A DNA stretch of 64,000 nt from Bacillus sp. ISL-37. GTDB lineage: Bacteria > Bacillota > Bacilli > Bacillales > Cytobacillaceae. This document shows positions 1 to 53,275 of the stretch, piece by piece (positions within the stretch are counted from its first letter, which is position 1; every line of letters begins with the position of its first letter). The notes below the pieces were generated by a model that did not search any database, was not told the origin of the DNA, and saw only the letters and a program-made list of their open reading frames with translations. The translations under genes were made by a program, and so were the position numbers. The stretch spans positions 359,538 through 423,537 of the forward strand of contig NZ_JAGGQL010000005.1 of NCBI RefSeq assembly GCF_018613315.1. The letters run 5' to 3'.

Positions 1-72
1 GTTTCGGAGTTTCTAGGAGGCAACACTAGACAAGCGACTCGAGGGGCTAGGTGCTGGAGCTGGACAATTCTC
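1..72 (+). repeat. Interspersed structured repeat, copy R1 (cut by window edge)
   Basis: This is the 3' part of the repeat family found again near 24.0, 41.4, 49.7 and 52.6 kb. It carries the shared end module (CGACTCGAGGGGCTAGG followed by GCTGGAGCTGGACAA). It also has an upstream module, GTTTCGGAGTTTCTAGGAGG, that is otherwise seen only in copy R2. The 5' half lies outside the window. It sits just downstream of recG and in the same orientation as the other copies. I see no coding sequence between it and the recG stop codon. Confidence 0.75.
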
Positions 73-184
73 GAGGTGAATTTATATAAATTCTGATATT
101 ATCAAATAACCGAAAGCAGATTCAAAACTGAATCTGCTTCCGTCCATGCTATGAATCTTGTAAGAGTAAATAGATTCAGTCAGG

Positions 185-14684: not shown

Positions 14685-17099
14685 TTACATCAGTATATAA
14701 GGGTTCAGGTCGACAGAAATCTGCAACGCTCCTGTGCCTGTTTCCTGCTGGTAATGATCCAGTATTGTTTTTAAGGCATTTTTAAGTTCTGGTTCCTTTT
14801 TGTATTTTATCAGACATTGATAGCGATATCTATCGTTGATCCGTGGGATTGGTGATGCTACAGGACCCAGAACGACTGCTTCATTCGTCAGCCTTGAGGA
14901 GATGAATTTGGCGATCTTTTCAGTAACTGATACGACTTTCATCAATTCTTCATGGCTGACAGTTACCAGGGAAAGGTAATAAAACGGCGGGTACTGATGA
15001 ACCTTCCTGATCAGCATTTCCTGCTGGTAAAACCGGTCGTAATCCTGTGTCCCGGCAAGTTCAACACTGTAATGCTCAGGAGTATAGGTCTGAATCACTA
15101 CCTCTCCAGGAAGCTTGTGCCTTCCAGCCCTCCCGCTAACCTGCGTCAAAAGCTGAAATGTTTTTTCCGAGGAGCGGAAATCAGGCAGATTCAACATTGT
15201 GTCTGCTGAAAGAACACCTACTAATGTAATGTTTGGAAAATCCAACCCTTTCGCAATCATTTGCGTTCCGAGTAAAATGTCTGCCTGGCCCTCCTGAAAA
15301 GCAGTCAGTAACTTTTCATGCGAACCCTTCCTGCCAGTTGTATCGACATCCATCCTGATAATTCTCGCTTCAGGAATCAATTTCAACAATTCTTCCTCAA
15401 CCTTTTGAGTCCCGGTGCCGAAATAGCGGATATGCTCACTGTTACACTCAGGACAAATGGTCGGCACCCTGTCTTCATAGCCGCAATAATGGCACTTCAT
15501 CTGCTCATTATAGCGGTGGTATGTCAGCGTAATATCGCAGTGCGGGCAGTTCATGACATATCCGCAATCACGGCACATCACAAACGACGAATGCCCGCGT
15601 TTATTCAAAAACAGGACAGTCTGCTCTTTTTTCTCCAGCCTGTCTTTTATCTTTTCAAAAAGCTTTACCGAAAACATAGATCGGTTTCCCGTCCGCAATT
15701 CTTCACGCATATCGACGATTTCAACTGTTGGGAGCGCCTGATTGTTCATCCGCTTTGGCAGAGACAGCAGAGTGTACCTTCCTTTTTGCGCACGTGCAAA
15801 TGATTCAAGTGAAGGAGTTGCACTGCCAAGGACAACTGGACAAGCATTTGTTTTAGCCCGCTGAATCGCGACGTCCCTTGCATGGTATCTCGGGTTTTCC
15901 TCTTGTTTGTAGCTCGTTTCATGCTCTTCATCGATAATTATGATCCCGATATTCTCAAAGGGAGCAAAGATCGCTGACCTCGCACCTACAACAACTTTTA
16001 CTTCCTTGCGCTGGATTTTTCGCCATTCATCATACTTCTCCCCAGCCGACAGTCCGCTATGCATGACAGCCACCAAATCACCAAACCGCTCTTTGAAACG
16101 CGTGACCATTTGCGGCGTTAATGAAATTTCAGGCACAAGCACAATCGCTTCCTTGCCTTTCCTTAAGACCTCCTGGATGGATTGCAGATAGATCTCCGTC
16201 TTCCCGCTGCCTGTAACACCATACAATAGGAAGACTTCATGCAAATCCTTTTCAATAGCAGAAAGGACCGGGCTAATAGCCTTTTCTTGTTCTTCTGTCA
16301 GTTCCAGAGCAACTTTCCGTTCAAATTCCCGTTCTGAATATGGGTCTCTGTATACCTCCAGCTCTTCAACTTTCAGTATGCCTTTTTTAACAAGAGATTG
16401 AATTGATGCCTGGGAGATTCCGAGAGTGGAGAGTATCAGCCTCTGTTCCACAGGCTCCGGATGTTCAAGGAAGAAGTCGATTACAGATTGTTGCCCTGAC
16501 GCCTGTGGTGGAAGTTTATCCCGTGTCTCCTTCAGCTGTTCAGTATCAATTGCTGGGTAAACATGCTTGAGCAGCTTTTTGCGCACTCTGTCCTTCACCT
16601 GGTAAACAACTTCTACCCTGCCAGACGCCGCCTCCTTTTGGAGTTGCTGGACAAGCCCCTTCGAAACGGCATCCTCCCATTTAATTTCTCTATTTCCTCT
16701 GAATAACTCTATTAAATTCCCAGACAGGTCGGTTATCTCCGTTCTTTTTGCCAGGACAATTTTCTTTTCATATTTAGCCTTTAATGCTGCTGGAAGCATT
16801 GCCTGATAAGAGGAGATTTTATAGCTTAATGTATGCTCAGTCAACCAGTCACCCAGCTGTAGAAGCTCCTCATTCAATACCGGTGTCAAATCAAGAGGTT
16901 CGATGATTGCCCGCAGCTTCGAAAAACTGGACTCTCCCTTAAGGTCCCTGACAAAGCCCTGGATTTTCCTTGGACCGAAGGGGACGATCACCCTTGTCCC
17001 AGGCTTGATCACATCTTTGTATTTTTCAGGGATTTTATAGTCAAAAGTTTTGTCGGTTTGCTTTGCAGGCACATCGACAATAACACTTGCTATATTCAT
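14685..17099 (-). CDS. priA: Primosomal replication restart helicase PriA
   Basis: PriA recognises abandoned forks and reloads the replicative helicase through the DnaD/DnaB route in Bacillus. The 804-residue protein has an N-terminal DNA-binding domain (FDYKIPEKY), Walker A GVTGSGKTEIY, a DEEH box and SATPSLES. The zinc region has paired cysteines (CRDCGYVMNCPHC, CHYCGYE, CPEC), then the C-terminal GRAGRHKLPGEV. The ATG overlaps the coaBC stop codon by 4 bp. Confidence 0.97.
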   Translation of the reverse strand: MNIASVIVDVPAKQTDKTFDYKIPEKYKDVIKPGTRVIVPFGPRKIQGFVRDLKGESSFSKLRAIIEPLDLTPVLNEELLQLGDWLTEHTLSYKISSYQAMLPAALKAKYEKKIVLAKRTEITDLSGNLIELFRGNREIKWEDAVSKGLVQQLQKEAASGRVEVVYQVKDRVRKKLLKHVYPAIDTEQLKETRDKLPPQASGQQSVIDFFLEHPEPVEQRLILSTLGISQASIQSLVKKGILKVEELEVYRDPYSEREFERKVALELTEEQEKAISPVLSAIEKDLHEVFLLYGVTGSGKTEIYLQSIQEVLRKGKEAIVLVPEISLTPQMVTRFKERFGDLVAVMHSGLSAGEKYDEWRKIQRKEVKVVVGARSAIFAPFENIGIIIIDEEHETSYKQEENPRYHARDVAIQRAKTNACPVVLGSATPSLESFARAQKGRYTLLSLPKRMNNQALPTVEIVDMREELRTGNRSMFSVKLFEKIKDRLEKKEQTVLFLNKRGHSSFVMCRDCGYVMNCPHCDITLTYHRYNEQMKCHYCGYEDRVPTICPECNSEHIRYFGTGTQKVEEELLKLIPEARIIRMDVDTTGRKGSHEKLLTAFQEGQADILLGTQMIAKGLDFPNITLVGVLSADTMLNLPDFRSSEKTFQLLTQVSGRAGRHKLPGEVVIQTYTPEHYSVELAGTQDYDRFYQQEMLIRKVHQYPPFYYLSLVTVSHEELMKVVSVTEKIAKFISSRLTNEAVVLGPVASPIPRINDRYRYQCLIKYKKEPELKNALKTILDHYQQETGTGALQISVDLNPYILM

Positions 17100-23938: not shown

Positions 23939-24216
23939 AAAAGCGGAGGCGACTGCCCAACTCCGACAAGCGCTGGAGGGCCTGACAGTGAAGTCGCTCA
24001 TTGACTTCATTGGCAGGACCGAAATCGGAAAGTTTAGCCGACTGTCCAGAAACGCAGAAACTGGAGACTCCGACAAAGAAGCGCTTTTTGCTTCTGACGG
24101 CGGAGTTGAAGTTTCGGAGTTTCTAGGAGGCGAAACTAGACAAGCGTCTCGAGGAGTTAGGAGCCGCAGCTGGACAATAGAAAAGCGGAACCGCCTTGGT
24201 CAAACCAGACAAGGCT
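23939..24216 (+). repeat. Interspersed structured repeat, copy R2 (compound)
   Basis: This copy has the 5' end AAAAGCGGAGGCGACTGCCC, the inner hairpin TGACAGTGAAGTC / GACTTCATTGGCA and an extra central stretch. It also has the module GTTTCGGAGTTTCTAGGAGG and the end module CTCGAGGAGTTAGGAGCCGC. Its outer helix AACTCC/GGAGTT differs from AGCCCC/GGGGCT of copies R3 and R4 by paired changes. Directly after it a second, truncated 5' end begins at about 24180 (AAAAGCGGAACCGCCTTGGTC). It lies in the divergent yloB/rqcH gap. No convincing promoter was found there. Confidence 0.8.
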
Positions 24217-37560: not shown

Positions 37561-37586
37561 GGCTGATCCCCCTCCATTTTTTCAAG

Positions 37587-37730
37587 AAAAAAAGCACCCT
37601 GTTTTATGTTCAACAGGGTGCTTGACTATGAGCTTGCCGGCATAATCCCGGTAATACCGGGTTTGCGTGCATCTTGAATAAGCCGGTTCGCTCATAACAC
37701 CCTTTTAAGCCTCTCTGGACTTTATTAAAA
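37587..37730 (-). promoter_or_regulatory. PyrR attenuator in the pyrP-pyrB gap
   Basis: On the minus strand AGTCCAGAGAGGCT (37708-37721) matches the PyrR binding loop (anti-antiterminator). Downstream is an intrinsic terminator, AGCACCCTGTT/AACAGGGTGCT (37593-37622) plus a T run. UMP-bound PyrR stabilises the binding hairpin and lets the terminator form, cutting expression of pyrB onward. The mechanism is known from B. subtilis, and the elements are seen here. Confidence 0.93.
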
Positions 37731-37737
37731 GGTGGTA

Positions 37738-39057
37738 CTATGCTACATCGTTCTTTTTCTCAGTTTTTTTTTCCGTTTCCATTTCAAACATATCTTCTTC
37801 TAATTCCGGGCGTCCAGGCAGTACTAGGTTAAGGATGACACCAATTAGTGCTGCCAGAGCCATGCCATGTATTTCAAAGTTTTCATTTAACTTAATGAAT
37901 GCTCCGCCAATCCCGATTACGAGGATGACTGATGAGACGACCAGGTTTCTTGTGTTGCCAAAGTCGATTTTGCTGTCTACAAGCATACGCAGACCAGATG
38001 AAGCGATGATTCCGAACAGCAGGATGGAGACACCGCCCATCACCGGTGTAGGGATTGAGCTGATCAATGCCGTAATTTTACCGATAAATCCGAATACTGT
38101 CGCGATAATTGCTGCGCCAAGCAGGACATACACGCTGTATACTCTCGTAATCGCAAGGACACCGATGTTTTCACCGTATGTCGTCTTTGGCGGTCCGCCG
38201 ATCAGACCGGAAATCATTGTCGCCATACCATCACCCATGATGGAGCGGTGAAGACCCGGCTCTTTGATATAATCTCTGCCGACAACCTTGCTCAGTACAA
38301 GCTGGTGGCCGATATGCTCGGACAATGTAACGATTGCTACTGGAACCATCAGCATGACGATTTCCCAGCTGATGCTTACATTGTAATGAACGAATGGGAA
38401 GATGAAGTCTGGCATCTCGAAAATATTTGCTTCTTTTACTCCGCTGAAGTCTACGATGCCTATTGCCATTGAGTAAAGATAACCCACAATGATTCCGGCA
38501 AGGATTGGGACCATGCTGAGCATTCCCTTTCCGTAAATCGAGAAGACGATTGTCGCTGCAAGAGTTACTAAAGCCGCAGAGAAATGAATCAAGCTATACT
38601 CTGTAGTTCCAGGGACATTCATTGCCATGCTGACAGCTGTTCCTGCCAGTGAGAGTCCGATGACAATGATGACCGGGCCGACTACAACTGGCGGCAACAA
38701 GCGCATGATCCAGCGGTAGCCCGCCTTCTTGATGATTAGAGCTACAACTCCATAAACCAGTCCAGCAAGGAATGTTCCGATCATCGCGGCACCGGGACCG
38801 CCGCCTGCTTTAGCGGCTATGACAGGAGCAATGAAAGCGAAGGATGATCCAAGGTAAGCCGGAACCTGGAATTTTGTGATGATCAGGAAAGCGATCGTTC
38901 CAAGTCCGCTTGAGATCAAAGCGATTGCCGGGCTTAAGCCGACCAGATAAGGTACAAGGATTGTCGCGCCAAACATGGCGAATAAGTGCTGAAGACTAAG
39001 TGTGAACCATTGGAATGGTGATGGTACATCTTTTATGTCTAGGATTGGTTTATTCAT
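37738..39057 (-). CDS. pyrP: Uracil permease
   Basis: A 439-residue NCS2/NAT-family uracil:proton symporter with about 12-14 membrane segments. Family motifs include QHLFAMFGATILVPYLVGL near the start, the GGPPKTTYGENIGVLAITRV substrate-site region and PTPVMGGVSILLFG. It lies second in the operon as in B. subtilis. AGGAGA sits 7 nt before the ATG. Both its upstream and downstream gaps hold PyrR attenuators. Confidence 0.97.
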   Translation of the reverse strand: MNKPILDIKDVPSPFQWFTLSLQHLFAMFGATILVPYLVGLSPAIALISSGLGTIAFLIITKFQVPAYLGSSFAFIAPVIAAKAGGGPGAAMIGTFLAGLVYGVVALIIKKAGYRWIMRLLPPVVVGPVIIVIGLSLAGTAVSMAMNVPGTTEYSLIHFSAALVTLAATIVFSIYGKGMLSMVPILAGIIVGYLYSMAIGIVDFSGVKEANIFEMPDFIFPFVHYNVSISWEIVMLMVPVAIVTLSEHIGHQLVLSKVVGRDYIKEPGLHRSIMGDGMATMISGLIGGPPKTTYGENIGVLAITRVYSVYVLLGAAIIATVFGFIGKITALISSIPTPVMGGVSILLFGIIASSGLRMLVDSKIDFGNTRNLVVSSVILVIGIGGAFIKLNENFEIHGMALAALIGVILNLVLPGRPELEEDMFEMETEKKTEKKNDVA

Positions 39058-39081
39058 TTTTATATCTCCTCTCTTTTGTAC

Positions 39082-39190
39082 AAAAAAACCCTCTTTGCCA
39101 GTAGATACAAAGAGGGTATGGGTCTAAAAAAACCCGCACAAAGCCATCAGCCATGCGTTCCCCCTTTTCAGCCTCTCTGGACTGCATTTA
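39082..39190 (-). promoter_or_regulatory. PyrR attenuator in the pyrR-pyrP gap
   Basis: The PyrR binding loop AGTCCAGAGAGGCT lies at 39170-39183 (minus strand). It is followed by the terminator ACCCTCTTTG/CAAAGAGGGT (39088-39117) with seven Ts. It has the same layout as the other two attenuators of the operon. Confidence 0.93.
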
Positions 39191-39202
39191 AAAGGGCTTT
39201 AT

Positions 39203-39751
<549 letters not shown>

Positions 39752-39810
39752 TCACTCCTTCTCTGTCTGTGGTATGAAAACGGAAGTTCAGCACGTCTTA
39801 TGTTTCATAT

Positions 39811-39930
39811 AAAAAACCCTCTTGTCTGCATCGGCAAGAGGGTAAACGTGTGGTGTTAGCATGCAGCAAAGCATACATCATATGCCTGTTGCAAATCCGT
39901 TTCCTTCTCAGCCTCACGGGACTGTCTTTA
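39811..39930 (-). promoter_or_regulatory. PyrR attenuator in the pyrR leader
   Basis: The binding loop reads AGTCCCGTGAGGCT (39910-39923), a variant of the AGTCCAGAGAGGCT found in the other two leaders. The terminator is ACCCTCTTG/CAAGAGGGT (39816-39843) with a T run at 39811-39816. Confidence 0.93.
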
Positions 39931-39952
39931 AAGGACTTATTAAACTATAGTC

Positions 39953-41352: not shown

Positions 41353-41402
41353 AAAGGTAACCTCCACATCAATTCACTACCTTTGAATTTTAGCACATAT
41401 TA

Positions 41403-41580
41403 GGAAAAGCGCAAGCGCCTTGGTCAGCCCCGACAAGCGCCGCCCGCCTAAAAACGCCACATCGTGTGGCTCGCGGGTCTGCAAGTCCTGTGCCTCAGAG
41501 GGCCTGACAGTGAAGTCGCTTTTTGACTTCATTGTCAGGACCGAAGCGACTCGAGGGGCTAGGCGCTGGAGCTGGACAAT
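41403..41580 (+). repeat. Interspersed structured repeat, copy R3
   Basis: The copy reads GAAAAGCGCAAGCGCCTTGG at the 5' end and GGGGCTAGGCGCTGGAGCTG at the 3' end. The ends pair as GCGCCT/AGGCGC and AGCCCC/GGGGCT. The inner hairpin is CCTGACAGTGAAGTC (41503-41517) with GACTTCATTGTCAGG (41525-41539), 14 of 15 Watson-Crick pairs plus one G-T. An optional module with GCCACA-TCG-TGTGGC lies before it. The copy is upstream of lspA and downstream of the DksA-like gene. Confidence 0.85.
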
Positions 41581-41730
41581 TCTCTAGATTTAAAATATCC
41601 TTTCTAATTTTTTTTAATAAAACGACAGATATTATAAGTTTTAGTAAAAAAACTCCTTTTAACAGAAAAGTTCTAACTAAAAATAGAGGTCTAGGATCAT
41701 GATTTTATCAGAAACTGAACTGTCAAAATG

Positions 41731-41845
41731 GTTTATTGGCGAAAAAATATTTTTATTGGCGATTTTCAATTTTTATTGGCGAAAAATTGATTTTATTGGC
41801 GATAACGAGCTGTTTATTGGCGAAAATCAATTTTTATTGGCGACT
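41731..41845. repeat. Tandem array T3, about 20-bp units
   Basis: TTTATTGGCGA occurs six times (starts near 41732, 41752, 41772, 41792, 41813 and 41833), with variable 8-9 nt between. It lies in the gap between lspA and the DksA-like gene. It is a simple tandem array without constant-length unique spacers. The remaining bases of this gap (41581-41730) are A/T-rich, with nothing I can name. Confidence 0.8.
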
Positions 41846-41903
41846 TGGAAATTTTCAGTGATTTTCCCATTACACTTTGAGTGGAAATCAGTTACTTAGC
41901 TTC

Positions 41904-41928
41904 AAAAAGCTTTCTTGCCGAGCTTTTT
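41904..41928. terminator. Terminator after the DksA-like gene
   Basis: AAAAAGCT (41904-41911) pairs with AGCTTTTT (41921-41928). It has A/T-rich flanks on both sides and lies 35 nt past the gene's stop codon. Confidence 0.6.
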
Positions 41929-41962
41929 TCCTTGAACCAATAAATCCGGAATGCATGAAAAC

Positions 41963-42250
41963 TCACGAATAGATTGGTTTTCGACAGTATTGTTCTATTT
42001 GCTCCAATTCACTCGCTGATCTAGCTGTAGGAATTCTCTGCAAAAACTCGTAGGGTAAATATTCTCCAGATATCTCACACTTCCCATACTCACCAAATTC
42101 CATTTTCTCCAATGCTGTTTCGATATCGTTTAATTCATCAACAATGTATTGCAAAATCCTCTCATCTTTCTGGCCGTCATTCAGGTACGCTAACAATTCT
42201 GTTCTCGTTTCGCGGAGCTCATTGTAAATGTAATCAAGATTACCTTCCAT
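41963..42250 (-). CDS. TraR/DksA-type protein (YlyA-like)
   Basis: A 95-residue protein beginning MEGNLDYIYNELRETRTELL, a helical N-terminus, then a shortened DksA-type C-terminus GEYGKCEISGEYLPYEFLQR. Only two cysteines remain (KCEISG and YCRK), so the C4 zinc finger is degenerate. It occupies the position of B. subtilis ylyA between ileS and lspA. DksA-type proteins bind the RNA polymerase secondary channel; YlyA is reported to affect sporulation gene expression. ATG 42250 is chosen because GGGGG lies 7 nt before it. The frame extends 15 codons further up. Confidence 0.82.
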   Translation of the reverse strand: MEGNLDYIYNELRETRTELLAYLNDGQKDERILQYIVDELNDIETALEKMEFGEYGKCEISGEYLPYEFLQRIPTARSASELEQIEQYCRKPIYS

Positions 42251-42358
42251 ATATCTGCCCCCGTTCCTGTTTACAGCTATTATTTCCCGTAACAATTTGC
42301 TGACTCAGCTAAACTTTTTACATGTACTGCAGGATTTCCCAAGCAGGATGATAATTGG

Positions 42359-42396
42359 CAAAAAACAAAAGAACTCCGGATAAAATTCCGGAGTTC
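42359..42396 (-). terminator. ileS terminator
   Basis: GAACTCCGGA (42371-42380) pairs perfectly with TCCGGAGTTC (42387-42396). On the minus strand TTTTGTTTTTT follows. It is 9 nt past the ileS stop codon. Confidence 0.93.
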
Positions 42397-42405
42397 AAGA
42401 GATGT

Positions 42406-45165
42406 TTAGTAATTTTCTTTTACAACAGTTGCACAGCGTTCACATAATGTTGGGTGTTCTTCAACCTTGCCGACTTCTGGTGTGACAACCCAGCATCTCT
42501 CACAAGTTTCGCCTTCAGCTTTTGTAACAACAATCGCTGTATTTTCAAGTTTGATCGCATGATCAGGAGCCTGGTCGTAGCTTCCTGCGACTTCGAACCC
42601 TGAAACAATGAACAGCTGGCTTAAGTTTTCAGAGATTGAATCCAAAAGCTCTTTTGTGCTGTCGTTTACGTATAAAGAAACCTTCGCAGTCAGGGACTTA
42701 CCAATGACCTTCTGATTCCTAGCTTCTTCAAGAGCCTTCAGGACATCGTCACGTAGCTTCATGAATGCATTCCACTTGTTTTCAAGTGCTTCTGCATTTG
42801 CGATTTCCTTTGCTTCAGGCATATCTGTCAGCTGGACGCTGTCTTCCTTCGCTGAAGGAATGAATGCCCAAACCTCATCAGCTGTATGAGAAAGGATCGG
42901 TGCAGTCAGCTTAACCAATGCAAGCAAACTCTCGTGTAATACTGTCTGGATAGCTCGTCGCTCAGAGTTGTCTGTAGCTTCGATATATAAGACATCCTTT
43001 GCAAAATCCAGATAGAATGCACTTAAGTCAAGAGTACAGAAATTATTGACCGCATGGTAGACACCGGCAAATTCATAATTGTCATAAGCATTGTTTACAT
43101 ATTTGATCAATTTGTTCAACTTCACGAGCATGAACTGATCAACTTCACGAAGCTGCTCGAATGGCACGGCATCAGTTTCAGGATTGAAATCAGAAAGGTT
43201 GCCAAGCAAGAATCTAAATGTGTTACGGATTTTACGGTACACTTCAGCAACCTGCTTCAGGATCGCGTCAGAAACACGTACGTCGGATTGATAATCGACG
43301 GATGCAACCCAAAGACGCAGGATATCGGCACCCAACTGGTTCATAACCTTCGCAGGAACGACAACGTTACCGATTGATTTACTCATCTTGCGGCCTTCTC
43401 CATCAAGTGCGAAACCGTGGCTCAGGACACCTTTGTATGGTGCTTTGCCTGTTACTGCAACTGCTGTAGATAATGATGAATTGAACCAGCCACGGTATTG
43501 GTCAGATCCTTCAAGATAAAGGTCTGCAGGGCGCTGGAGGTCATCACGCTCTACTAGAACTGCCTGGTGGGATGAGCCTGAGTCGAACCAAACATCCATG
43601 ATGTCCGTTTCTTTCGTAAACTGTCCATTAGGGCTGCCAGGGTGGCTAAATCCTTCAGGGAGCAATTCCTTCGCTTCTTTTTCAAACCAGATATTAGAGC
43701 CTTGCTCACGGAAGAGGTTTGAGACATGGTCGATTGTTTCGTCCGTAATGATTTCTTCCCCGTTTTCTGCATAGAATACCGGAATTGGAACACCCCATGC
43801 ACGCTGGCGGGAGATACACCAGTCACCGCGATCACGGACCATATTGAATAGTCTTGTTTCGCCCCATGCTGGTACCCATTTTGTTTCTTCAACAGCTTTT
43901 AGCAATTCGCCGCGGAAATCTTTGATCGACGCAAACCATTGTGCTGTCGCACGGAAGATAACAGGTTTTTTAGTTCTCCAGTCATGCGGGTAGGAGTGTG
44001 TGATGAAGCTTAGCTTCAGTAAAGCGCCAGCTTCTTCAAGCTTTTCTGTGATTGGCTTGTTCGCCTGATCATAGAATAAACCTTCAAAGCCTTCTGCTTC
44101 AGCTGTCATAACACCCTTATCATCTACAGGGCATAAAACTTCAAGTCCATACTTCTGGCCAACATGGAAGTCATCCTCCCCGTGTCCTGGTGCAGTGTGG
44201 ACACATCCTGTACCAGCATCTGTCGTTACGTGCTCGCCAAGCATGACAAGTGAAGTGCGGTCGTATAATGGATGCTTTGCAAGGACACCTTCAAGCTCTT
44301 TACCAGCAAGTTTCTTAACTGTTGAAGTATTTTCCCAGCCGATTTCATTCGTAACTGCTTCTAAAAGTTCTTCAGCAACAAGGAATTTCCTACCGTCAGC
44401 TTCTACAACAACGTATGTCAATTCTGGGTGAACGGAGATTCCAAGGTTTGCCGGAATCGTCCATGGTGTTGTCGTCCAGATGACGATTTCAACATCCTGG
44501 TCAAGAACTCCTTTGCCGTCTTTAACAGGGAATCCAACATAGATCGATGCAGAACGCTTATCTTGATATTCAATCTCAGCTTCAGCAAGTGCTGATTCAC
44601 TTGATGGTGACCAGTAAACAGGCTTTTTCCCTTTGTAGATGTATCCCTTTTTGGCCATTTCGCCGAATACTTTGATTTGCTGTGCTTCATATTCAGGCTT
44701 CAAAGTGATATAAGGATTTTCCCAATCACCTCTCACTCCCAGACGCTTGAACTGTTCACGCTGGTTATTGATTTGCTCATATGCATATTCTTCACATAGC
44801 TTCCTGAACTCAGCTACAGTCATTTCCTTGCGTTTTACACCCTTGTTCGTCAATGCCTGCTCGATTGGCAATCCATGAGTGTCCCAGCCAGGTACATATG
44901 GCGAACAATAACCGCTCATTGATTTATAACGGACGATAAAATCTTTGAGGATTTTATTAAGTGCGTGACCCATATGGATATCTCCATTAGCGTATGGAGG
45001 TCCGTCATGCAGGATGAACAGCGGGCGTCCTTCTGTGTGCTTTTGAACCTTTTCATAAATATTCATTTCTTCCCATTTTGCCTGAATTTCAGGTTCCCTG
45101 TTCGGAAGGTTTCCGCGCATTGGAAACTCGGTCTTCGGCATGAGCAAAGTATCTTTGTACTCCAT
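42406..45165 (-). CDS. ileS: Isoleucyl-tRNA synthetase
   Basis: A class I synthetase of 919 residues. The HIGH motif is HMGHAL in [14 protein letters not shown], then the CP1 editing domain ([31 protein letters not shown]) and the KMSKS motif in [14 protein letters not shown]. The C-terminal zinc site has CERCWVV and CERCATV. The frame is open 46 codons upstream, through the T-box. The true start is ATG 45165, with AGGAGG 9 nt before it and [15 protein letters not shown] matching B. subtilis IleS. Expression is controlled by the T-box directly upstream. Confidence 0.98.
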
Positions 45166-45221
45166 TAGATTGATCCTCCTATTTTTACCGTTGCAATCAC
45201 GAAAGAAACAATAGTGAAAAT

Positions 45222-45500
45222 AAAAAAACCTCCTCATCCCTGAAAAGGGACGAGAAGGTTTATATTCCCGCGGTACCACCCTAAATAGACAAGGATTCAT
45301 CATCCTGTCCTCTTAGCATTCTTAACGCGAATGTCACGCCTGTGCTTACTGATCCTAAAGGATGTTCAGCTCGGAACTATCGGGTGATTTTCTGGCTATC
45401 CGCTTGCAATGGGCTTCCACCTTCCCCATTTCGCTGAAAAGCAAGCAACTGGAACGCCATACTGTCCCTGTCATCGTTTCTGTCATGTATTGCACTTTGT
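45222..45500 (-). promoter_or_regulatory. T-box riboswitch of ileS
   Basis: The T-box sequence AGGGTGGTACCGCG is at 45269-45282 on the minus strand. The terminator arms AACCTTCTCGTCCC/GGGATGAGGAGGTT (45227-45260) with a T run follow. Upstream a Stem I with an AGTA bulge (GACAGTATGG) and pairing TGGC/GCCA can be drawn. The 3' side after GCCA reads GAAAATCACC, putting a candidate ATC isoleucine specifier at 45386-45388. Uncharged tRNA-Ile would stabilise the antiterminator. The T-box and terminator are certain; the specifier is my fold. Confidence 0.93.
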
Positions 45501-45506
45501 TATGAA

Positions 45507-45536
45507 ATTATATGCGAAATAACGTCCCCGCGTCAA
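45507..45536 (-). promoter_or_regulatory. Sigma-A promoter of the ileS T-box transcript
   Basis: TTGACG (45531-45536) and TATAAT (45507-45512) on the minus strand are separated by 18 nt. The -35 contains the TGA stop codon of divIVA, so the ileS promoter begins inside the previous gene. Confidence 0.85.
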
Positions 45537-46054
45537 GCCAGTGAATCTTCTTCTTCTCTTGCAGCAGCCTTCAATTCTGTTGAATCCAATTCATATTCAA
45601 GCAGATGATCCCAATCATCGGTGTTCAGCATATCCAGCTGCGCCTCGATCAGCATCTTGAACCTTGTTCTGAATACTTTTGACTGCTTCTTCAATTCTTC
45701 AATTTCCAGGGCGATTTTACGTGCCTTGGATAGAGATTCGTTGATGATCCGGTCAGCGTTCTTTTCCGCTTCCTTGACGATCAGCTTTGCTTCCTTTTGC
45801 GCATTGCGGCGAACTTCTTCCCCAGCTTCTTGGGCAATCACGATTGATTTATTCAAGGTTTCTTCTATATTTGTAAAATGGCCAAGCCTGGAATTCATTT
45901 CATTTAGCTTTTCTTCCATCTCTTTTTTTTCACGGATAATTAGTTCGTAGTCCTTGATCACATTGTCAAGAAACTCATTTACTTCATCTTCATCATACCC
46001 GCGAAATCCTTTATTGAATTCTTTGTTGTGTATATCTAACGGCGTTAAAGGCAT
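45533..46054 (-). CDS. divIVA: Cell division initiation protein DivIVA
   Basis: DivIVA binds negatively curved membrane at poles and division sites and recruits MinJ, RacA and others. The 173-residue protein has the membrane-binding N-terminal domain MPLTPLDIHNKEFNKGFRGY, with the conserved Phe/Arg tip. A long coiled coil (about 30-150) ends in DWDHLLEYELDSTELKAAA. ATG 46054 has GGGAGGT 6 nt upstream, and the open frame above it is not conserved. It is slightly longer than B. subtilis DivIVA (164). Confidence 0.97.
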   Translation of the reverse strand: MPLTPLDIHNKEFNKGFRGYDEDEVNEFLDNVIKDYELIIREKKEMEEKLNEMNSRLGHFTNIEETLNKSIVIAQEAGEEVRRNAQKEAKLIVKEAEKNADRIINESLSKARKIALEIEELKKQSKVFRTRFKMLIEAQLDMLNTDDWDHLLEYELDSTELKAAAREEEDSLA

Positions 46055-46145
46055 TACGCCACCTCCCATTAAGTTATAATCCTTTATGTACTTAAAGCAA
46101 TGATTCGACAAATAAACTAAAAATCCTTCTTCTATTACTATATAA

Positions 46146-46919
46146 TTATTTTTTTCTCCCGGCAATAACTCGATATTTATCTTTTTTTGTTTTCCCGTCA
46201 ATTGTGATGATTTTCGCACGCCCGTAACCACGTGCTGAAATAACATCACCTTCACCGCATTCAAAAGCAGTATTTTCAATCGCAGTCCAATTAACCTTTA
46301 CTTGGCCATGCTGGATGAGTAACTGAGATTTTTGCCTTGAGATATTGAACAGTGCGGACATGACGGTATCCAGACGCAATGACGAAACGGTAGTGTTCAT
46401 TTCATTCCATTCCTCAGTAATTCCCACTGCCATTTCAAGCGGAAGCTCTGACAAGCCAATCGAAGCTCTGCCGATTGATTCTAATTGAAGCCCGATGTAA
46501 TCGGCGATTTCCTCAGCTGCGAAAAATTGCACAACATCTCCGTCAATCAGGATATCTCCAAATTTCCCACGCTTCAAGCCAAGTGACATCAGGCTGCCCA
46601 AAACTTGACGGTGTTCGATATTCACAAACTTCTTTGCATATTCAATACCAAAAAGCTTTACCTGGAAATCATCTTCTTTAACTTCCATATACTCTGGAAA
46701 AAGAAATGCCCGTTTTCTCTCGGTACCTGGTGCACCGCCAAACAGTTCCCACTTAACATCGGGATGCTTGCCGATAACGGTAGACAAGATTTGCTGCTCC
46801 CTCGGATCCAAAAAATCAGTCAATTTCGGGGCATAGTTTTGTTCAACATACTCTTTCCAGTTAATGACCTGATCGATAAATTCCCGTTCCTCGGGACGGA
46901 AATGCTGGTAAATACTCAT
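46146..46919 (-). CDS. ylmH: S4-domain RNA-binding protein YlmH (RqcP2-like)
   Basis: The 257-residue protein matches YlmH in length and layout. An N-terminal domain (MSIYQHFRPEEREFIDQV) is followed by the S4 domain near residues 180-250 (LRLDTVMSALFNISRQKSQL, QVKVNWT). YlmH is reported to bind 50S-peptidyl-tRNA complexes and act in ribosome quality control beside RqcH/RqcP; RqcH is also encoded in this window. It lies between ylmG and divIVA, with AAAGGAG before the ATG. Confidence 0.94.
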   Translation of the reverse strand: MSIYQHFRPEEREFIDQVINWKEYVEQNYAPKLTDFLDPREQQILSTVIGKHPDVKWELFGGAPGTERKRAFLFPEYMEVKEDDFQVKLFGIEYAKKFVNIEHRQVLGSLMSLGLKRGKFGDILIDGDVVQFFAAEEIADYIGLQLESIGRASIGLSELPLEMAVGITEEWNEMNTTVSSLRLDTVMSALFNISRQKSQLLIQHGQVKVNWTAIENTAFECGEGDVISARGYGRAKIITIDGKTKKDKYRVIAGRKK

Positions 46920-46949
46920 TTTGTACTCCTTTTACATTTAAAACATTAA

Positions 46950-46982
46950 TAGAAAATAAGCAGGGTCTGATTCAGACCCTGC
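46950..46982 (-). terminator. Terminator between ylmG and ylmH
   Basis: A perfect 11-bp stem, GCAGGGTCTGA/TCAGACCCTGC, with a 1-nt centre (46960-46982). On the minus strand TTATTTTC follows. It would end the ylmC-ylmG unit, so ylmH may have its own promoter or depend on read-through. Confidence 0.8.
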
Positions 46983-47002
46983 AAGACAAGAAATGATCTT
47001 TA

Positions 47003-47263
47003 TTAAAACCATGCAGCCAGCTGATACAATCCACTGACAGCAAAACGCAATACAAGGAACGCAACGATTGGCGAAATATCAATCATGCCGATTGAAGGAA
47101 CAATCCGTCGGAAAGGCTCCAGGAAAGGTTCGCAAATACGTGCTAAAAATTGTCCGATTGCTGTTTCTCTGGCATTAGGGAACCATGACATGAAAATATA
47201 AATAATCAAGGCCCACTGATAAAGACTGACTATCTGAGCTATTATGCCTATTACTAAATCCAT
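47003..47263 (-). CDS. ylmG: YggT family membrane protein YlmG
   Basis: An 86-residue YggT-family protein with two hydrophobic segments ([20 protein letters not shown] and [18 protein letters not shown]). It has the family stretch [21 protein letters not shown] between them. Homologs sit next to sepF in many Gram-positives and are linked to division or membrane organisation; the biochemical role is unknown. It starts 5 nt after the sepF stop codon. Confidence 0.94.
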
Positions 47264-47268
47264 TTACT

Positions 47269-47709
47269 CTACCACCTCGACTCTTGGTAATCCCGCTCCT
47301 GCATCAGTTCAGAAATATTTCCTGTTACTTCTACATTATCCGGGGTACATAAGAAGATATTCATGCCGATCCGCTGGATATCCCCGCTGATCGCATAGAC
47401 TGTTCCGCTGAGGAAATCTACTATACGCCTTGCCTGATCCTGTTCGATACGCTGCAGGTTCACAACAACTGCCCGGCGATTTTTTAAATGATCAGCAATA
47501 TCCTGTGCTTCCGCATACATTCTAGGTTCCATCAGGATCACTTTCGAAGACTTTTGCACACTCTGCAGGCTTACCACATTCTGCTTTTGCTGAACAGGCT
47601 GTTTATTGGGCTTGAAAGGCTCAGCTTCTCCCTCGAGCATTTCCTCATCATTATAGTCATATTCATCTTCCAGGAAAAAAAATGTCTTAATTTTTGATTT
47701 TAAGCTCAT
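47269..47709 (-). CDS. sepF: Cell division protein SepF
   Basis: SepF tethers FtsZ to the membrane and bundles it into arcs. The 146-residue protein has an N-terminal amphipathic membrane helix ([12 protein letters not shown]), an acidic linker ([10 protein letters not shown]) and the C-terminal DUF552 domain with [20 protein letters not shown] and [17 protein letters not shown] 47709 is chosen: GGAGGT lies 8 nt before it, inside the end of ylmE. The frame extends 7 codons further. Confidence 0.96.
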
Positions 47710-47710
47710 A

Positions 47711-48397
47711 TTAATGCACCTCCGATTCATTGCCTACCAAGGCAGTGCCAATACGCACCATTGTTGATCCTTCTTCAACAGCTATTTGAAAGTCATTTGA
47801 CATTCCCATTGACAGTTCATTACATGGTGCAAATTCAAGTTTCCGCGATTGTATATCTGCTTGCAGCCTTTTCATTGTCCTGAAGCAATCCCTGATCACT
47901 TGCTCATCCTCCGTTAAAGGGGCCATCGTCATCAATCCGCTGATTTCAATATTGGAAAACTGCTTCAGTTCTTTTACAAAACCAATGACATCATCCGGTT
48001 TTAACCCATGCTTGCTCTCTTCGCCGGATGCATTGACCTGGATCAGACATCTCACTTTTGAACCTGATCGTTTATTGATTTCTTTTGCAAGTGACAGCCT
48101 GTCCAATGAATGGATATATGTAACATGCTCAATGATGTTTTTCACTTTTCTCGTTTGCAGCGTCCCAATAAAATGCCAGACCGGCTTGTCCCCTAATTGG
48201 CCAATTTTATGAAGCAGTCCTTCATCCCGATTTTCGCCAAGATGGGTGACCCCAGCATCAACGGCTTCCTGTGCCCGTTCTGGTGAAACATATTTAGTTA
48301 CCGCAATAATCTTGATTTCTTCTGGATTACGCCCGGCTTTGTTACAGGCATCTGCTATTTGATTCTGGATAACCTCCAGATTTTCTCTGACTTTCAT
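47711..48397 (-). CDS. ylmE: Pyridoxal phosphate homeostasis protein (YggS family, YlmE)
   Basis: A 228-residue PLP-binding protein, a TIM barrel without known enzyme activity that keeps B6 and amino-acid pools balanced. The PLP lysine is in [15 protein letters not shown], followed by [17 protein letters not shown], the SGLMTMAP stretch and [24 protein letters not shown]. Its ATG overlaps the ylmD stop codon by one base (TAATG). Confidence 0.96.
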
Positions 48398-49227
48398 TAT
48401 GGATGGCTATCCTCCTTCCAGCCGATATAAGCCATCATTCGGCCTGCATTACCCTTATCCCGTCTGTGGGAATAGAAATGCTCACTATGGCAGCTAGTGC
48501 AATAATCGGTTACATGTATATTCCCGTCTTCTACCCCTGTCTTTAACAGAATCTGACGGTTCAATTCCTTTAAATCGAGAGAATATTGACCTTCACTAAC
48601 TTGATTATATGGTAATATATCGACACCATCTAGTATATTTTTCACTAAATTGATGACTCTCTCATCAACAATATAACATTTTTTGCATATTGATGGGCCT
48701 ATAATGGCAGAAATTTTTTCTGTTTTTGCGCCATTTTGCTGAAATTTGCTGACCATTTCCGCCGCAATACCGTGAACAGTGCCTTTCCAGCCAGCGTGAG
48801 CGACCCCGATCAGCCTGGTCTCCGGTTCAATAAAATAAAGCGGGACACAGTCTGCAAAACAAAGTGTCAGCAGGATCCCTTGCTCATCTGTCAGAAAGCC
48901 ATCCGTTCTTGAAAAAGAAGTATCATAGGTCGTTGAGCCTCTTCCTTGATCCGATTTTCCGATTTTGGCGATGCTGATATCATGAGTTTGTTCTGCTCCA
49001 ACCCATCTGGAAAGGGGAAATTCGATCTTATCGGCCAGCAGGAGACGATTTTCACAAACAGCATTCTGCTCGTCTCCTACATGAAAGCCGAAGTTCAAAC
49101 CCGAAAAAGCATCCTGCTGGCTCACGCCACCGTTCTTCGTTGTGAACCCAACCTCAAGCCCAGGATAACGCTCCATCCACTCTTTAATTTTAAAATATTC
49201 CTGGCTTTCTAAGATGAATGGTTCCAT
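48397..49227 (-). CDS. ylmD: Laccase-domain purine nucleoside-acting enzyme (YfiH/PgeF family, YlmD)
   Basis: A 276-residue multicopper-oxidase-like fold protein. Metal and active-site motifs include LTLCFADCVPLYF, GVAHAGWKGTVHGI and IGPSICKKCYIVD. Family members are reported as peptidoglycan editing factors (PgeF) and as purine nucleoside phosphorylase/adenosine deaminase-like enzymes. The function in Bacillus is not settled. It is coupled to ylmE through a TAATG junction. Confidence 0.93.
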   Translation of the reverse strand: MEPFILESQEYFKIKEWMERYPGLEVGFTTKNGGVSQQDAFSGLNFGFHVGDEQNAVCENRLLLADKIEFPLSRWVGAEQTHDISIAKIGKSDQGRGSTTYDTSFSRTDGFLTDEQGILLTLCFADCVPLYFIEPETRLIGVAHAGWKGTVHGIAAEMVSKFQQNGAKTEKISAIIGPSICKKCYIVDERVINLVKNILDGVDILPYNQVSEGQYSLDLKELNRQILLKTGVEDGNIHVTDYCTSCHSEHFYSHRRDKGNAGRMMAYIGWKEDSHP

Positions 49228-49293
49228 ATTTTTACCTCACACGTTTTTGTCTAGTTTATCACATACAAACCGCAATACAACAGTATTACGATG

Positions 49294-49569
49294 TTACTCA
49301 TCACCGTCACTTTTTTGTTGCAGATATCCCCCGCTGTCTTTATACCGGACTAAAATGACATCTTCACCTATTTTCAGGATATTTGTCCAGGGAATCACAA
49401 CCTCATCTTCCTTTCCGAAGAATCCCAGCACCTTACCTGAACTCCCAATCACAACAGCTTCGATTTTACCCGTATTTAAATTGATTTCAAAATCCTCTAT
49501 ATTACCAAGCCTTTTTCCATCCGAAACATTCACGACATCTTTAACTTGAAATTCTGTCACCTTAACCAT
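49294..49569 (-). CDS. ylmC: YlmC/YmxH family PRC-barrel protein
   Basis: A 91-residue PRC-barrel protein with VSDGKRLGNIEDFEINLNTG and VVIPWTNILKIGEDVILVR. The YlmC/YmxH family is common in spore-formers, and one paralog lies near sporulation genes; no biochemical role is known to me. GGAGGG precedes the ATG. The gene follows sigG here with R4 between them. B. subtilis has ylmA in that gap. Confidence 0.9.
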   Translation of the reverse strand: MVKVTEFQVKDVVNVSDGKRLGNIEDFEINLNTGKIEAVVIGSSGKVLGFFGKEDEVVIPWTNILKIGEDVILVRYKDSGGYLQQKSDGDE

Positions 49570-49716
49570 ATAGATCCCTCCGGATTTCGCTTTGGCATTA
49601 ATTAGCCCTTATATAAAATATATGAAGGGGAAACAGATGTATGAATTACTTCAGTGGATCTTGAATTTTATAGAGTCGTCCTACTTCGTAATGCCCTTGT
49701 ATAAAACAAAGAACAA

Positions 49717-49833
49717 AAAAGCGCAAGCGCCTTGTTCAGCCCCGACAAGCGCTGGAGGGCCGACCAGTGAAGTCGTTCTTTGACTTCATTGGGCGGACCG
49801 AAGCGACTCGAGGGGCTAGGCGCTGGAGCTGGA
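49717..49833 (+). repeat. Interspersed structured repeat, copy R4 (minimal)
   Basis: This is the shortest complete copy, 117 bp. The ends pair as GCGCC/GGCGC and AGCCCC/GGGGCT. The inner hairpin is CCGACCAGTGAAGTC (49760-49774) with GACTTCATTGGGCGG (49782-49796). Compared with R3, two inner base pairs change on both strands together (T-A to G-C, A-T to C-G). It lies between sigG and ylmC. Confidence 0.85.
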
Positions 49834-49885
49834 TTAAAAATACTACATGTATTTATCCAACTAAATAATTTTTATAATTTCCTAA

Positions 49886-49914
49886 ACGATAAAAAAGCTG
49901 CCAAAAGGCAGCTT
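49886..49914 (-). terminator. sigG terminator
   Basis: AAGCTGCC (49895-49902) pairs with GGCAGCTT (49907-49914). On the minus strand TTTTTTATCG follows. It starts at the sigG stop codon. Confidence 0.88.
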
Positions 49915-50692
49915 AGCTTTGGATATTCTTATTCATTTGTTTGATGGCTGCTTTTTCAAGACGGGACACCTGGGCTTGTGAGATGCCGATTTCATCGGCT
50001 ACCTCCATTTGTGTCTTACCCTGGAAGAATCTCTTCCTTAGAATCAACTTTTCACGCTCATTCAGGCGTCTCATACCTTCCTTCAAGGCGATTTCTTCAA
50101 TCCAGTTTGTATCCTTGTTCCGTTCATCACTTAGCTGGTCCATCACATAGATTGGATCTCCGCCATCGTTATAGATCGGTTCAAATAAGGACACGGGATC
50201 CTGAATCGCATCAAGAGCGAAGACAATTTCCTCGTGAGGTACCTCTAGAACCTTGGCGATTTCTTCCGCAGTTGGTTCCCTTGATGCCTCACTCATCAGC
50301 CTTTCGCGTACCTGAAGCGCTTTATAGGCTATATCCCTTAATGAGCGCGAGACTCTGATTGGATTATTATCTCGTAAATACCGTCTAATTTCACCGATGA
50401 TCATCGGGACGGCATAGGTGGAAAACTTAACATTTTGTCCCAAATCAAAATTATCAATGGACTTCATAAGACCTATACATCCGACCTGAAATAGGTCGTC
50501 AACAAACTCGCCCCGGTTGTTAAAACGCTGGATTACACTTAAAACAAGCCTCAGGTTCCCATTCACAAGTTTCTCTCTTGCTGTGATGTCACCGCTTTGC
50601 ATTTCTCTAAAAAGTTTTCTCATTTCCTCGTTTTTAAGAACGGGAAGCTTTGATGTATCAACACCGCAAATTTCAACTTTGTTTCGTGTCAA
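49913..50692 (-). CDS. sigG: Forespore sigma factor sigma-G
   Basis: Sigma-G drives late forespore gene expression after engulfment. The 259-residue protein shows the N-terminal RNKVEICGVDTSKLPVLKNE, region 2 (LVNGNLRLVLSVIQRFNNRG, FQVGCIGLMKSIDNF) and the region 4 helix-turn-helix (TQMEVADEIGISQAQVSRLE). The start is TTG at 50690-50692, 7 nt after AGGAGG. The same ribosome binding site is paired in a leader hairpin (50701-50713). Together with the candidate forespore promoter this suggests restrained expression. It lies 172 bp after sigE. Confidence 0.97.
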   Translation of the reverse strand: MTRNKVEICGVDTSKLPVLKNEEMRKLFREMQSGDITAREKLVNGNLRLVLSVIQRFNNRGEFVDDLFQVGCIGLMKSIDNFDLGQNVKFSTYAVPMIIGEIRRYLRDNNPIRVSRSLRDIAYKALQVRERLMSEASREPTAEEIAKVLEVPHEEIVFALDAIQDPVSLFEPIYNDGGDPIYVMDQLSDERNKDTNWIEEIALKEGMRRLNEREKLILRKRFFQGKTQMEVADEIGISQAQVSRLEKAAIKQMNKNIQS

Positions 50693-52581: not shown

Positions 52582-52814
52582 AGAAAAGCGTAAGCGCCTT
52601 GGTCAGCCCCGACAAGCGTTGCCCGCCTAAAACGACACATCGTGTGGCTGCGGGTCTGCACGTCCTGTGCCTCAGAGGGCCGACCAGTGAAGTCGTTCTT
52701 TGACTTCATTGGGCGGACCGAAACGTCTCGAGCTGCTCAAAGCTAACGCTTCTCGCAAGATACTCGAAGAAGCACTTTCAGTGATGAAAACTGGCTAAGC
52801 GCTGGAGCTAGACA
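52582..52814 (+). repeat. Interspersed structured repeat, copy R5
   Basis: The 5' end GAAAAGCGTAAGCGCCTTGG starts 2 nt from the spoIIGA ribosome binding site. The copy has the optional GACACATCGTGTGGC module, the same inner hairpin sequence as R4, and about 60 extra bases near the 3' end (including CTTCTCGCAAGATACTCGAA). It finishes with GCGCTGGAGCTAGAC. The GGGGCT outer arm is lost in this copy. Confidence 0.82.
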
Positions 52815-53275
52815 CTAATCAAGTGATAAACTCTATACGCTTATACAGGTACAGAATTCGCATGCGCCTTGTTTGACAGCTGAAAGTGCTGTGTCAGACT
52901 CAGATTCAGAATCTTCATCCCTCTTGCTTGAAATGATCAAGCATGCCAACGGCTAATTAACGGTTCAATCTGGCAAACCGCCCAAACTACTTTGGATGGT
53001 AAAAAACAACCTGGCGTCGAGCAAAGTTTAGCAACCACTGTTGAAGCACGTGATCACCGATTTGCTTCTTGCTCTATCATTCCGTTACGGAAAAGTATAT
53101 CGTCTATGGCCTATGAAGTGTGTCATAATCTGGCACCAAAACAACAGAGATTTTCACTTTTCCCTTCGGATTTTGTCAATTTTCAGATTATTAACTTTAG
53201 GAATAAATGATGCTTGAATTTTTAGTAGGTCATATATTCTAATGTATGTTGTTTAGTAGATTTCTAAAAATAACA
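52815..53275. other. Gap between spoIIGA and ftsZ with no recognisable gene
   Basis: About 460 bp. The longest plus-strand frame (52992-53210, 72 codons) has no ribosome binding site and no similarity that I can name; the minus strand is broken by stops. B. subtilis has bpr (bacillopeptidase F) in this gap; I cannot trace any part of it. The base composition is less A/T-rich than the final 150 bp. It could be a decayed gene. Confidence 0.4.

What the first reader, a model, noticed from the sequence alone, without database searches (positions are those of the whole stretch)
41403..49833. Interspersed repeat whose two helices show paired compensatory changes
Seen: five copies (1-72, 23939-24216, 41403-41580, 49717-49833, 52582-52814). 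The inner hairpin is CCTGACA.../...TGTCAGG in R3 and CCGACCA.../...TGGGCGG in R4 and R5. Position 3 changes T-A to G-C and position 5 A-T to C-G, both strands together. The outer helix is AGCCCC/GGGGCT in R3 and R4 but AACTCC/GGAGTT in R2, again two paired changes. Four compensatory changes in so few copies suggest that the fold, as RNA or as cruciform DNA, is what is kept. Five copies in 64 kb would imply hundreds per genome if the density holds. I do not know a name for this family.
Basis: partly seen in the sequence, partly recalled or inferred. Interest (0 to 1): 0.8.

Follow-up and report, generated by a model that had tools for sequence, protein, structure and literature searches.

The report
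Hairpin repeats homing beside transcription terminators
A short hairpin-forming DNA repeat, present in many copies in this bacterium and its Bacillus-type relatives, tends to insert in one fixed direction right beside the stop signals of genes and keeps its fold while its letters change, so it looks like a small mobile element for which we found no name.

Summary
The five copies are real and belong to a large family: 81 places confirmed in this genome, 20 of 20 same-genus relatives, 181 of 249 genomes and 79 of 106 genera sampled in the order. The core folds into one long bulged hairpin; 23 of its 39 pairs covary above a tree-based null. Copies are mobile: empty sites exist in relatives for window copies R3 and R4 and for five other sites. 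Insertion has polarity: a terminator hairpin lies on the 3' side in 41 of 60 own-genome copies, on the 5' side in 8 of 60 (controls 94 and 74 of 400); same trend in relatives (22 and 0 of 39) and other genera (12 and 4 of 16). An optional module is Rfam RF01690 "Bacillaceae-1 RNA", itself a multi-copy repeat. No mobilising enzyme was found (DDE transposases not searched). Most likely a non-autonomous, terminator-homing hairpin element: a new variant of a known kind.

The parts
1..108 (+). R1: 3' part of a type A copy (core end plus tail, end approximate); begins left of the window
23939..24216 (+). R2: variant copy with outer helix AACTCC/GGAGTT and an extra 3' module, followed by a fragment of a second copy
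   Evidence: model match 23947-24043
41400..41619 (+). R3: type A copy with tail; empty site in L107-L110 and L116
41432..41494 (+). optional module in R3 resembling Rfam RF01690 Bacillaceae-1 RNA (19.1 bits, below the gathering score of 35; nine matches in sister copies of this genome reach 35.5-38.8)
49710..49883 (+). R4: compact type B copy (model match 49719-49834 plus tail ending TATAATTTCCT); empty site with both flanks matching in L108; element also absent from L107, L111, L112, L115 and L119, where the left flank has diverged
49891..49914 (-). terminator-like A-tract and hairpin (AAAAAAGCTGCC AAAA GGCAGCTT) of the minus-strand ORF 49913-50692, next to the 3' end of R4; read by eye
52582..52850 (+). 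R5: type A copy with an extra 5' module and an insertion in the outer 3' arm; 3' end approximate

Best explanation
The repeat is a non-autonomous mobile element of roughly 116-400 bases whose body is one long bulged hairpin. It is moved by an enzyme supplied in trans that has not been identified. It inserts with polarity next to intrinsic terminators, so that on the strand of the adjacent gene the order is usually gene, terminator stem, T-tract, reverse-complement element. The element's own left end, read on that strand, is again a GC stem followed by a T-tract. Because it lands after genes it does little harm, so copies pile up and then decay. The hairpin is kept in the lineages that still move, because the folded strand is what the moving enzyme recognises, and this writes compensatory changes between lineages. 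Other small hairpin modules (Bacillaceae-1 RNA, a 3' module, whole extra copies) lodge inside or behind it. Shown: copy number, fold, covariation, empty sites, polarity beside terminators, nesting. Inferred: an enzyme acting in trans, recognition of the folded strand, near-neutral effect on the host.
For: 81 confirmed places in the own genome; 181 of 249 genomes in the order. Covariation. Empty sites at R3, R4 and X, a type B copy at C55:142177, and S1-S3 of contig C15. Polarity: terminator hairpin on the 3' side in 41 of 60 copies, on the 5' side in 8 of 60, controls 94 and 74 of 400 intergenic points (Fisher p 2e-11 and 0.37). After dropping loci with a further repeat start behind the copy: same-genus relatives 22 and 0 of 39, other genera 12 and 4 of 16 (p 3e-5 each, against the own-genome control). 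Right-hand gene on the opposite strand in 30 of 38 loci. Orientation against replication: 131 of 150 listed copies in four one-contig genomes (origin assumed at base 1). Within one genus, single changes that break a pair (27) are as common as wobble steps (24), as expected of decaying copies; in four leader RNAs the sums are 27 and 59.
Against: No mobilising enzyme was found. Y1 transposase: none in the own genome. Reverse transcriptase: none in G018 and G016, one divergent match in the own genome. IS110 transposase: none in G012, G014 and G016. No type B tail without a core among the places scored. DDE transposases were not searched. There is no constant target-site duplication: joints overlap by 0-11 bases, mostly of A/T run. 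Many of the hairpins also read as terminators in the other sense (30 of 60 on the 3' side, 11 of 60 on the 5' side), so the side is shown better than the sense. The first count for other genera (22 of 30) held a same-genus locus, a duplicate and arrays whose own starts look like terminators; cleaned it is 12 of 16. Some sites are filled in more distant and empty in nearer relatives (R3, S3), which needs precise loss or repeated insertion.
Confidence: 0.6

Rival explanations
1. The repeats are regulatory RNA units, for instance sponges for an RNA-binding protein such as CsrA (proposed for the reverse complement of Bacillaceae-1), and spread because their RNA is useful.
For: Covariation is strong. 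G.T mismatches exceed A.C on the + strand (A1: 40 versus 7 one-sided cells; A2: 86 versus 12 without one fixed column), as for a folded single strand. PMC4333381 (passages read) matches the reverse complement of Bacillaceae-1 to the CsrA site and says the strand is uncertain. In module copies of other genomes the loops keep TCCT (AGGA on the other strand) in 24 of 28 first and 21 of 26 second hairpins.
Against: The compact form has no Bacillaceae-1 module. In the 22 own-genome module copies that fitted the search pattern, the second loop is TCGT in 18. Module hairpins in other genomes show 1 G.T and 0 A.C in 270 cells, so no strand is marked (own-genome copies show 21 A.C, apparently at the outermost pair). 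Copies tend to sit beyond terminators. Unpaired columns also show C>T above G>A per column, which weakens the strand asymmetry.
Confidence: 0.15
2. The compensatory changes come from DNA template switching between the arms of an imperfect palindrome (quasi-palindrome correction, recalled), without selection for the fold.
For: Many both-sided and few one-sided cells compared with leader RNAs (one-sided: both-sided 44:67 in A1 and 57:711 in A2 against 97:17 summed over T-box and three PyrR leaders). Helix 3 runs through all four Watson-Crick types with 2 wobble cells in 462. On the tree of all 64 A1 copies 23 double changes stand beside 32 wobble steps, against 9 and 59 in the leaders.
Against: Within one genus there are 24 wobble steps and only 3 double changes, much like the leaders, so the doubles fall on long branches. 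Bulges and internal loops (for example GGA/GA) are conserved instead of being corrected.
Confidence: 0.1
3. It is a SINE-like retroelement moved by a group IIC intron reverse transcriptase, which also homes to terminators with the same polarity.
For: In relative G008, 14 reverse-transcriptase genes of equal score all have the polarity that the reverse complement of the repeat has; the three loci read are introns directly behind terminator stems. PMC8919778 (passages read) reports that bacterial-C introns insert immediately after rho-independent terminators.
Against: Genomes with many near-identical copies lack such a gene: none in G018 and G016, one divergent 58.7-bit match in the own genome. 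The folded strand seems to be the other one.
Confidence: 0.07
4. It is an REP/RAYT-type palindrome family moved by a Y1 (TnpA-REP) transposase.
For: Short intergenic palindromes in high copy.
Against: No Y1_Tnp match in the own genome (the same search rings in 5 of 14 control genomes). No GTAG/CGTC tag (named in the title of PMC3733652, listing) stood out in the end consensus.
Confidence: 0.03

Closest known systems
bcr1-bcr18 repeats of the Bacillus cereus group
   Same: intergenic, 100-400 bases; bcr1 reaches 130 copies; mobile features; conserved secondary structure reported for bcr10 and bcr18 (passages of PMC6542083 and PMC3446304)
   Different: described as restricted to the B. cereus group and tied to a TTTAT motif; this family was found in 79 of 106 sampled genera and lies beside terminators with polarity. 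Sequences could not be compared (PMC524882 not held).
Rfam RF01690 Bacillaceae-1 RNA
   Same: an optional module of this repeat matches it above the gathering score
   Different: it is only a module; elsewhere it sits in other palindromic sequences, in an rRNA spacer and in a broken 5S copy
Group IIC introns
   Same: target behind intrinsic terminators and same polarity
   Different: no reverse transcriptase; roughly 116-400 bases; present in genomes where no such gene was found
MITEs, e.g. the 180-base MITE of the same genome
   Same: non-autonomous, empty sites, A/T-rich targets
   Different: that MITE has clear terminal repeats and joints overlapping by 3-8 bases; the hairpin repeat has short or weak terminal repeats, a covarying internal hairpin and polarity
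REP/BIME elements with RAYT
   Same: high-copy extragenic palindromes (recalled)
   Different: no Y1 transposase in the own genome, much longer hairpin

Membership tests
Rfam RF01690 Bacillaceae-1 RNA | match at or above gathering score 35 bits | tested here: met
   9 of 15 matches, in 8 of 20 loci, reach it, for the optional module only; window copy R3 scores 19.1, and the 5 compact loci among the 20 have none
bcr1 family | sequence similarity to the bcr1 consensus | not testable with these tools
   consensus paper not held
bcr1 family | TTTAT motif repeated at the insertion joint | tested here: inconclusive
   joints are T/A runs; S1 has TTTAT on one side and GTTAT on the other, others not
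MITE | non-autonomous element with empty sites | tested here: met
MITE | terminal inverted repeats | tested here: inconclusive
   type A ATAAGAAA/TTTCTTAT, type B weak
MITE | constant target-site duplication | tested here: inconclusive
   overlaps of 0-11 bases, mostly within A/T runs
MITE | ends shared with an autonomous transposon | tested here: inconclusive
   no type B tail alone among 51 matches from 40 scored candidates of 159; type A ends and DDE transposases not searched
REP/RAYT | Y1 TnpA-REP transposase in the genome | tested here: not met
Group IIC intron | insertion behind terminator with fixed polarity | tested here: met
   as a strong tendency, not without exception
Group IIC intron | intron-encoded reverse transcriptase | tested here: not met
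   copies are too short to hold one; none found in G018 and G016
Structured RNA | significant covariation against a tree-based null | tested here: met
   23 of 39 pairs; the alignment was fitted to the model
Structured RNA | discrete transcript | not testable with these tools
   no RNA-seq

The most novel reading that the evidence does not exclude
An order-wide class of terminator-homing hairpin elements without any coding capacity: a folded single strand is recognised and placed, in one direction, at the 3' ends of transcription units, and serves as a dock for smaller hairpin modules (the orphan Bacillaceae-1 RNA among them) that insert into hairpins, even into a 5S rRNA copy. It would be the RT-less counterpart of group IIC introns, moved by an unknown enzyme or by host replication and repair alone.
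Probability: 0.2. Interest if true: 0.8.

Novelty: new variant of a known kind. Interest (0 to 1): 0.6.

Why it matters
It gives a very common repeat of Bacillales, for which the searches made here showed no name, a structure, ends, a target and a polarity, and it places a published orphan RNA (RF01690) inside a mobile, nested system. The strand question raised in print for that RNA becomes testable through the orientation of its carriers. It also offers a natural case for asking what moves hairpin repeats in genomes where no Y1 transposase or group II reverse transcriptase was found.

Tried and rejected
Tried and rejected or left open. (1) Reading the strand from wobble pairs: G.T exceeds A.C, but unpaired columns also show C>T above G>A per column, so it is only suggestive; by pairs it is 17 versus 6 (A1) and 23 versus 9 (A2). 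(2) RNA versus DNA from double versus single changes: looked decisive by cells, was not so by events within one genus. (3) A promoter-like TGGACA-N17-TATACT in one type A tail was seen by eye and not pursued. (4) The DnaA-box-like TTATCCACA in type B tails was noted, function not tested. (5) Autonomous partner by tail search: none. (6) Plasmid and phage collections: no match. (7) tRNAs as a wobble control: only one gene found, replaced by T-box and PyrR leaders. (8) Literature: searches listed no paper that I recognised as describing this family; only those terms were searched, most hits were seen as listings only, and most subscription papers are not held. PMC2267715 lists a Bacillus halodurans family Bhal-1 (74 bases, 36 copies; passages read) that could be related; sequence not compared. 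(9) My first genome contigs pattern had a wrong gap length and found nothing; corrected. (10) My first count of terminators in other genera held a same-genus locus, a duplicate and arrays; recounted. (11) Site Y (window 46937) was too diverged for exact joints.
Full report
WHAT IS THERE. The five copies exist at the stated coordinates. A 22-letter core motif matches 3 times in the window (up to 3 mismatches) and never in 100 shuffles.

HOW MANY. BLAST with R3 and with R4 gave 41 and 40 non-overlapping places in the own genome (in one search, 60 matches in all, of which I counted the 41 main ones and left out shorter pieces). Each search scored 40 of 171-179 candidates. In a 424-kb stretch (contig C55 plus window) and 400 kb of relative G018, not chosen by similarity, the covariance model found 29 matches at E <= 0.01; some are parts of one copy, and three (window, L163, L174) are the opposite strand of copies already counted. 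All 20 same-genus relatives have matches, 44 of 61 genomes overall. With model R1, 181 of 249 genomes and 79 of 106 genera of the order sample have at least one match. No match on 72,556 plasmids or 50,697 phages.

ANATOMY. The compact core is 116 bases and folds as one long bulged hairpin, z about -5.6 on either strand for R4. There are two end types. Type A starts ATAAGAAAAGCG and ends with a tail like AATTCTCGAAGTGAAATTTATACTTTCTTATC. Type B starts AGAACAAAAAGCG and ends with a tail like TAAGAAAACTACATGTAGTTATCCACAACTAAATAATTTTATAATTTCC. Tails of both types were recognised by eye in other genera (type A in L141 and L145, type B in L102 and L154). Longer forms carry modules. One is RF01690 Bacillaceae-1: 15 matches in 14 of 20 loci tested, 9 of them at or above the gathering score. 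Others are a 3' hairpin module and whole extra copies nested behind a GACAA. Tandem arrays with a period of about 122-126 bases occur.

COVARIATION. A1 holds 64 distinct compact copies (length 104-122 only), mean column identity 91%. 22 of 39 pairs show both-sided changes against 4.9 +- 1.6 in 500 shuffles and 3-9 in six slid versions. For a tree-based test I used A2 (79 model matches from 49 sources), dropped the two antisense rows, kept 74 distinct sequences (mean identity 62%) and compared G-test scores with 40 null alignments evolved on the tree: 24 pairs pass E < 0.05, 23 of them in the 39-pair structure and one adjacent to it. A2 was fitted to the model and tail E-values are extrapolated, so the numbers lean upwards; A1 was not fitted. 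Individual copies decay: within one genus 27 single breaks, 24 wobble steps, 10 repairs and 3 double changes; over all of A1 43, 32, 17 and 23.

RNA OR DNA. Cells with G.T (150) outnumber A.C (12) in A2 (86 and 12 without one fixed column), and 40 against 7 one-sided cells in A1, which points to the + strand as the folded strand. But unpaired columns also change C to T more often per column than G to A. Leader RNAs of the same genomes (T-box and three PyrR sites, 17-19 orthologues each) have 9-16% wobble cells against 5-6% here, and one-sided to both-sided cells of 97:17 against 44:67 (A1) and 57:711 (A2). On trees, however, the one-genus counts resemble those of the leaders. I leave this open.

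MOBILITY. Filled/empty pairs: R3 is filled in the window and empty in L107-L110 and L116. R4 is empty with both flanks matching in L108 and absent from five more with a diverged left flank. Site X (window 42364) is filled in L109 and L115 and empty in the 16 others with a joint. A type B copy at C55:142177 is empty in G018. On contig C15, S1 (L220:5424-5587) is empty in four relatives, S2 (15579-15933) in four and S3 (10061-10215) in six. At S1, on the strand of the adjacent gene, the empty site reads stem-CTCTTTTTTAT-GGATATAGG; the filled one has the element, beginning TGTTTAGG and ending GCGCTTTTTGTTAT, between TTTAT and GGATA. At S2 the element lies between the stop codon and the terminator, not behind it. 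Joints overlap by 0-11 bases, so no duplication length can be given. R3 and S3 are filled in some more distant and empty in some nearer relatives, which needs loss or re-insertion.

TARGET AND POLARITY. In 38 own-genome loci the gene beyond the 3' end is on the opposite strand in 30 (crude ORF calls, 2 loci appeared inside an ORF). A simple detector (A-tract then hairpin) finds a terminator within 130 bases of the 3' end in 41 of 60 copies and, mirrored, of the 5' end in 8 of 60; random intergenic points give 94 and 74 of 400 (p 2e-11 and 0.37). Read in the opposite sense the detector gives 30 and 11 of 60, as two-way terminators would. For relatives I first counted 25 and 0 of 42 and 22 and 5 of 30. 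The second set held one same-genus locus and one duplicate (without them 21 and 5 of 28) and 12 loci with another repeat start behind the copy, which itself looks like a terminator. Without such loci the counts are 22 and 0 of 39 in the genus and 12 and 4 of 16 in other genera (p 3e-5 each, using the own-genome control). A gene co-orientation of 75% (recalled) would give fewer (p 3e-4). As a yardstick, 14 group II-type reverse transcriptases of G008 all have the polarity of the repeat's reverse complement; three loci compared share 1.9 kb at 99.9-100% and start right behind terminator stems, as the literature says for bacterial-C introns (PMC8919778, passages).

WHAT MOVES IT. Not Y1/RAYT by presence in the own genome. 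Not obviously a group II reverse transcriptase (none in G018 and G016, one weak in the own genome, one each in G010, G012, G014) nor IS110 (none in G012, G014, G016). No type B tail without a core among 51 matches.

BACILLACEAE-1. Of 30 loci printed (3 without the motif at the centre), the module sits by eye in several different palindromic repeats and before a 16S gene (L355); it lies in a 16S-23S spacer (L360) and inside what by eye is a broken second 5S copy (L363; an intact 5S lies upstream). Weinberg et al. list it in a table row 'Y n n' (PMC2864571, passages, column heads not seen), and its reverse complement was proposed as a CsrA-binding RNA of uncertain strand (PMC4333381, passages). 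Own-genome module copies keep the TCCT loop in 17 of 22 first hairpins and 4 of 22 second ones; in other genomes 24 of 28 and 21 of 26.

VERDICT. A real, abundant, structure-conserving, terminator-homing mobile hairpin repeat found across the order; best filed as a new variant of the known kind 'non-autonomous interspersed repeats', with the mover and the RNA question open.

Noticed in passing
L363:1400-1640; L360:1501-1565; L355: Bacillaceae-1 RNA (RF01690) lies inside what looks like a broken second 5S rRNA copy, in a 16S-23S spacer, and just before a 16S gene: it behaves like an insertion into structured sequence.
   Followed up: partly
own contig C55 and G018 stretches, e.g. C55:277807-277991, C55:380309-380490: A second repeat of about 180 bases (GGCTGTTTTCGTAAAGATTG...GAGAAAAGAGCC) is polymorphic between the two genomes with joints overlapping by 3-8 bases: looks like a plain MITE.
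   Followed up: no
window 49835-49883 and other type B tails: Type B tails carry a DnaA-box-like TTATCCACA (15 of 37 exact, 28 of 37 with at most one mismatch; 0 of 50 type A tails), still present in L102 and L154 from other genera.
   Followed up: partly
G008 genome (L368, L372, L374): 14 group II-type reverse transcriptases of equal score, all in one polarity relative to replication; the three loci compared share a 1.9-kb intron directly behind terminator stems.
   Followed up: partly
L234, L284, L285: Records titled Chryseobacterium sp. ISL-80 carry this Bacillales repeat: probably a mislabelled or mixed assembly.
   Followed up: no
own contig C55:43235-43550: A roughly 50-base tandem repeat (with CACGGGCACATGTTTGCCCTTCTTGTGACCGTCATTCG) present in the own genome and absent at the same place in G018.
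   Followed up: no
window 37584-39938 and 45243-45483, minus strand: Three PyrR sites and a T-box leader, ordinary, used here as controls.
   Followed up: yes
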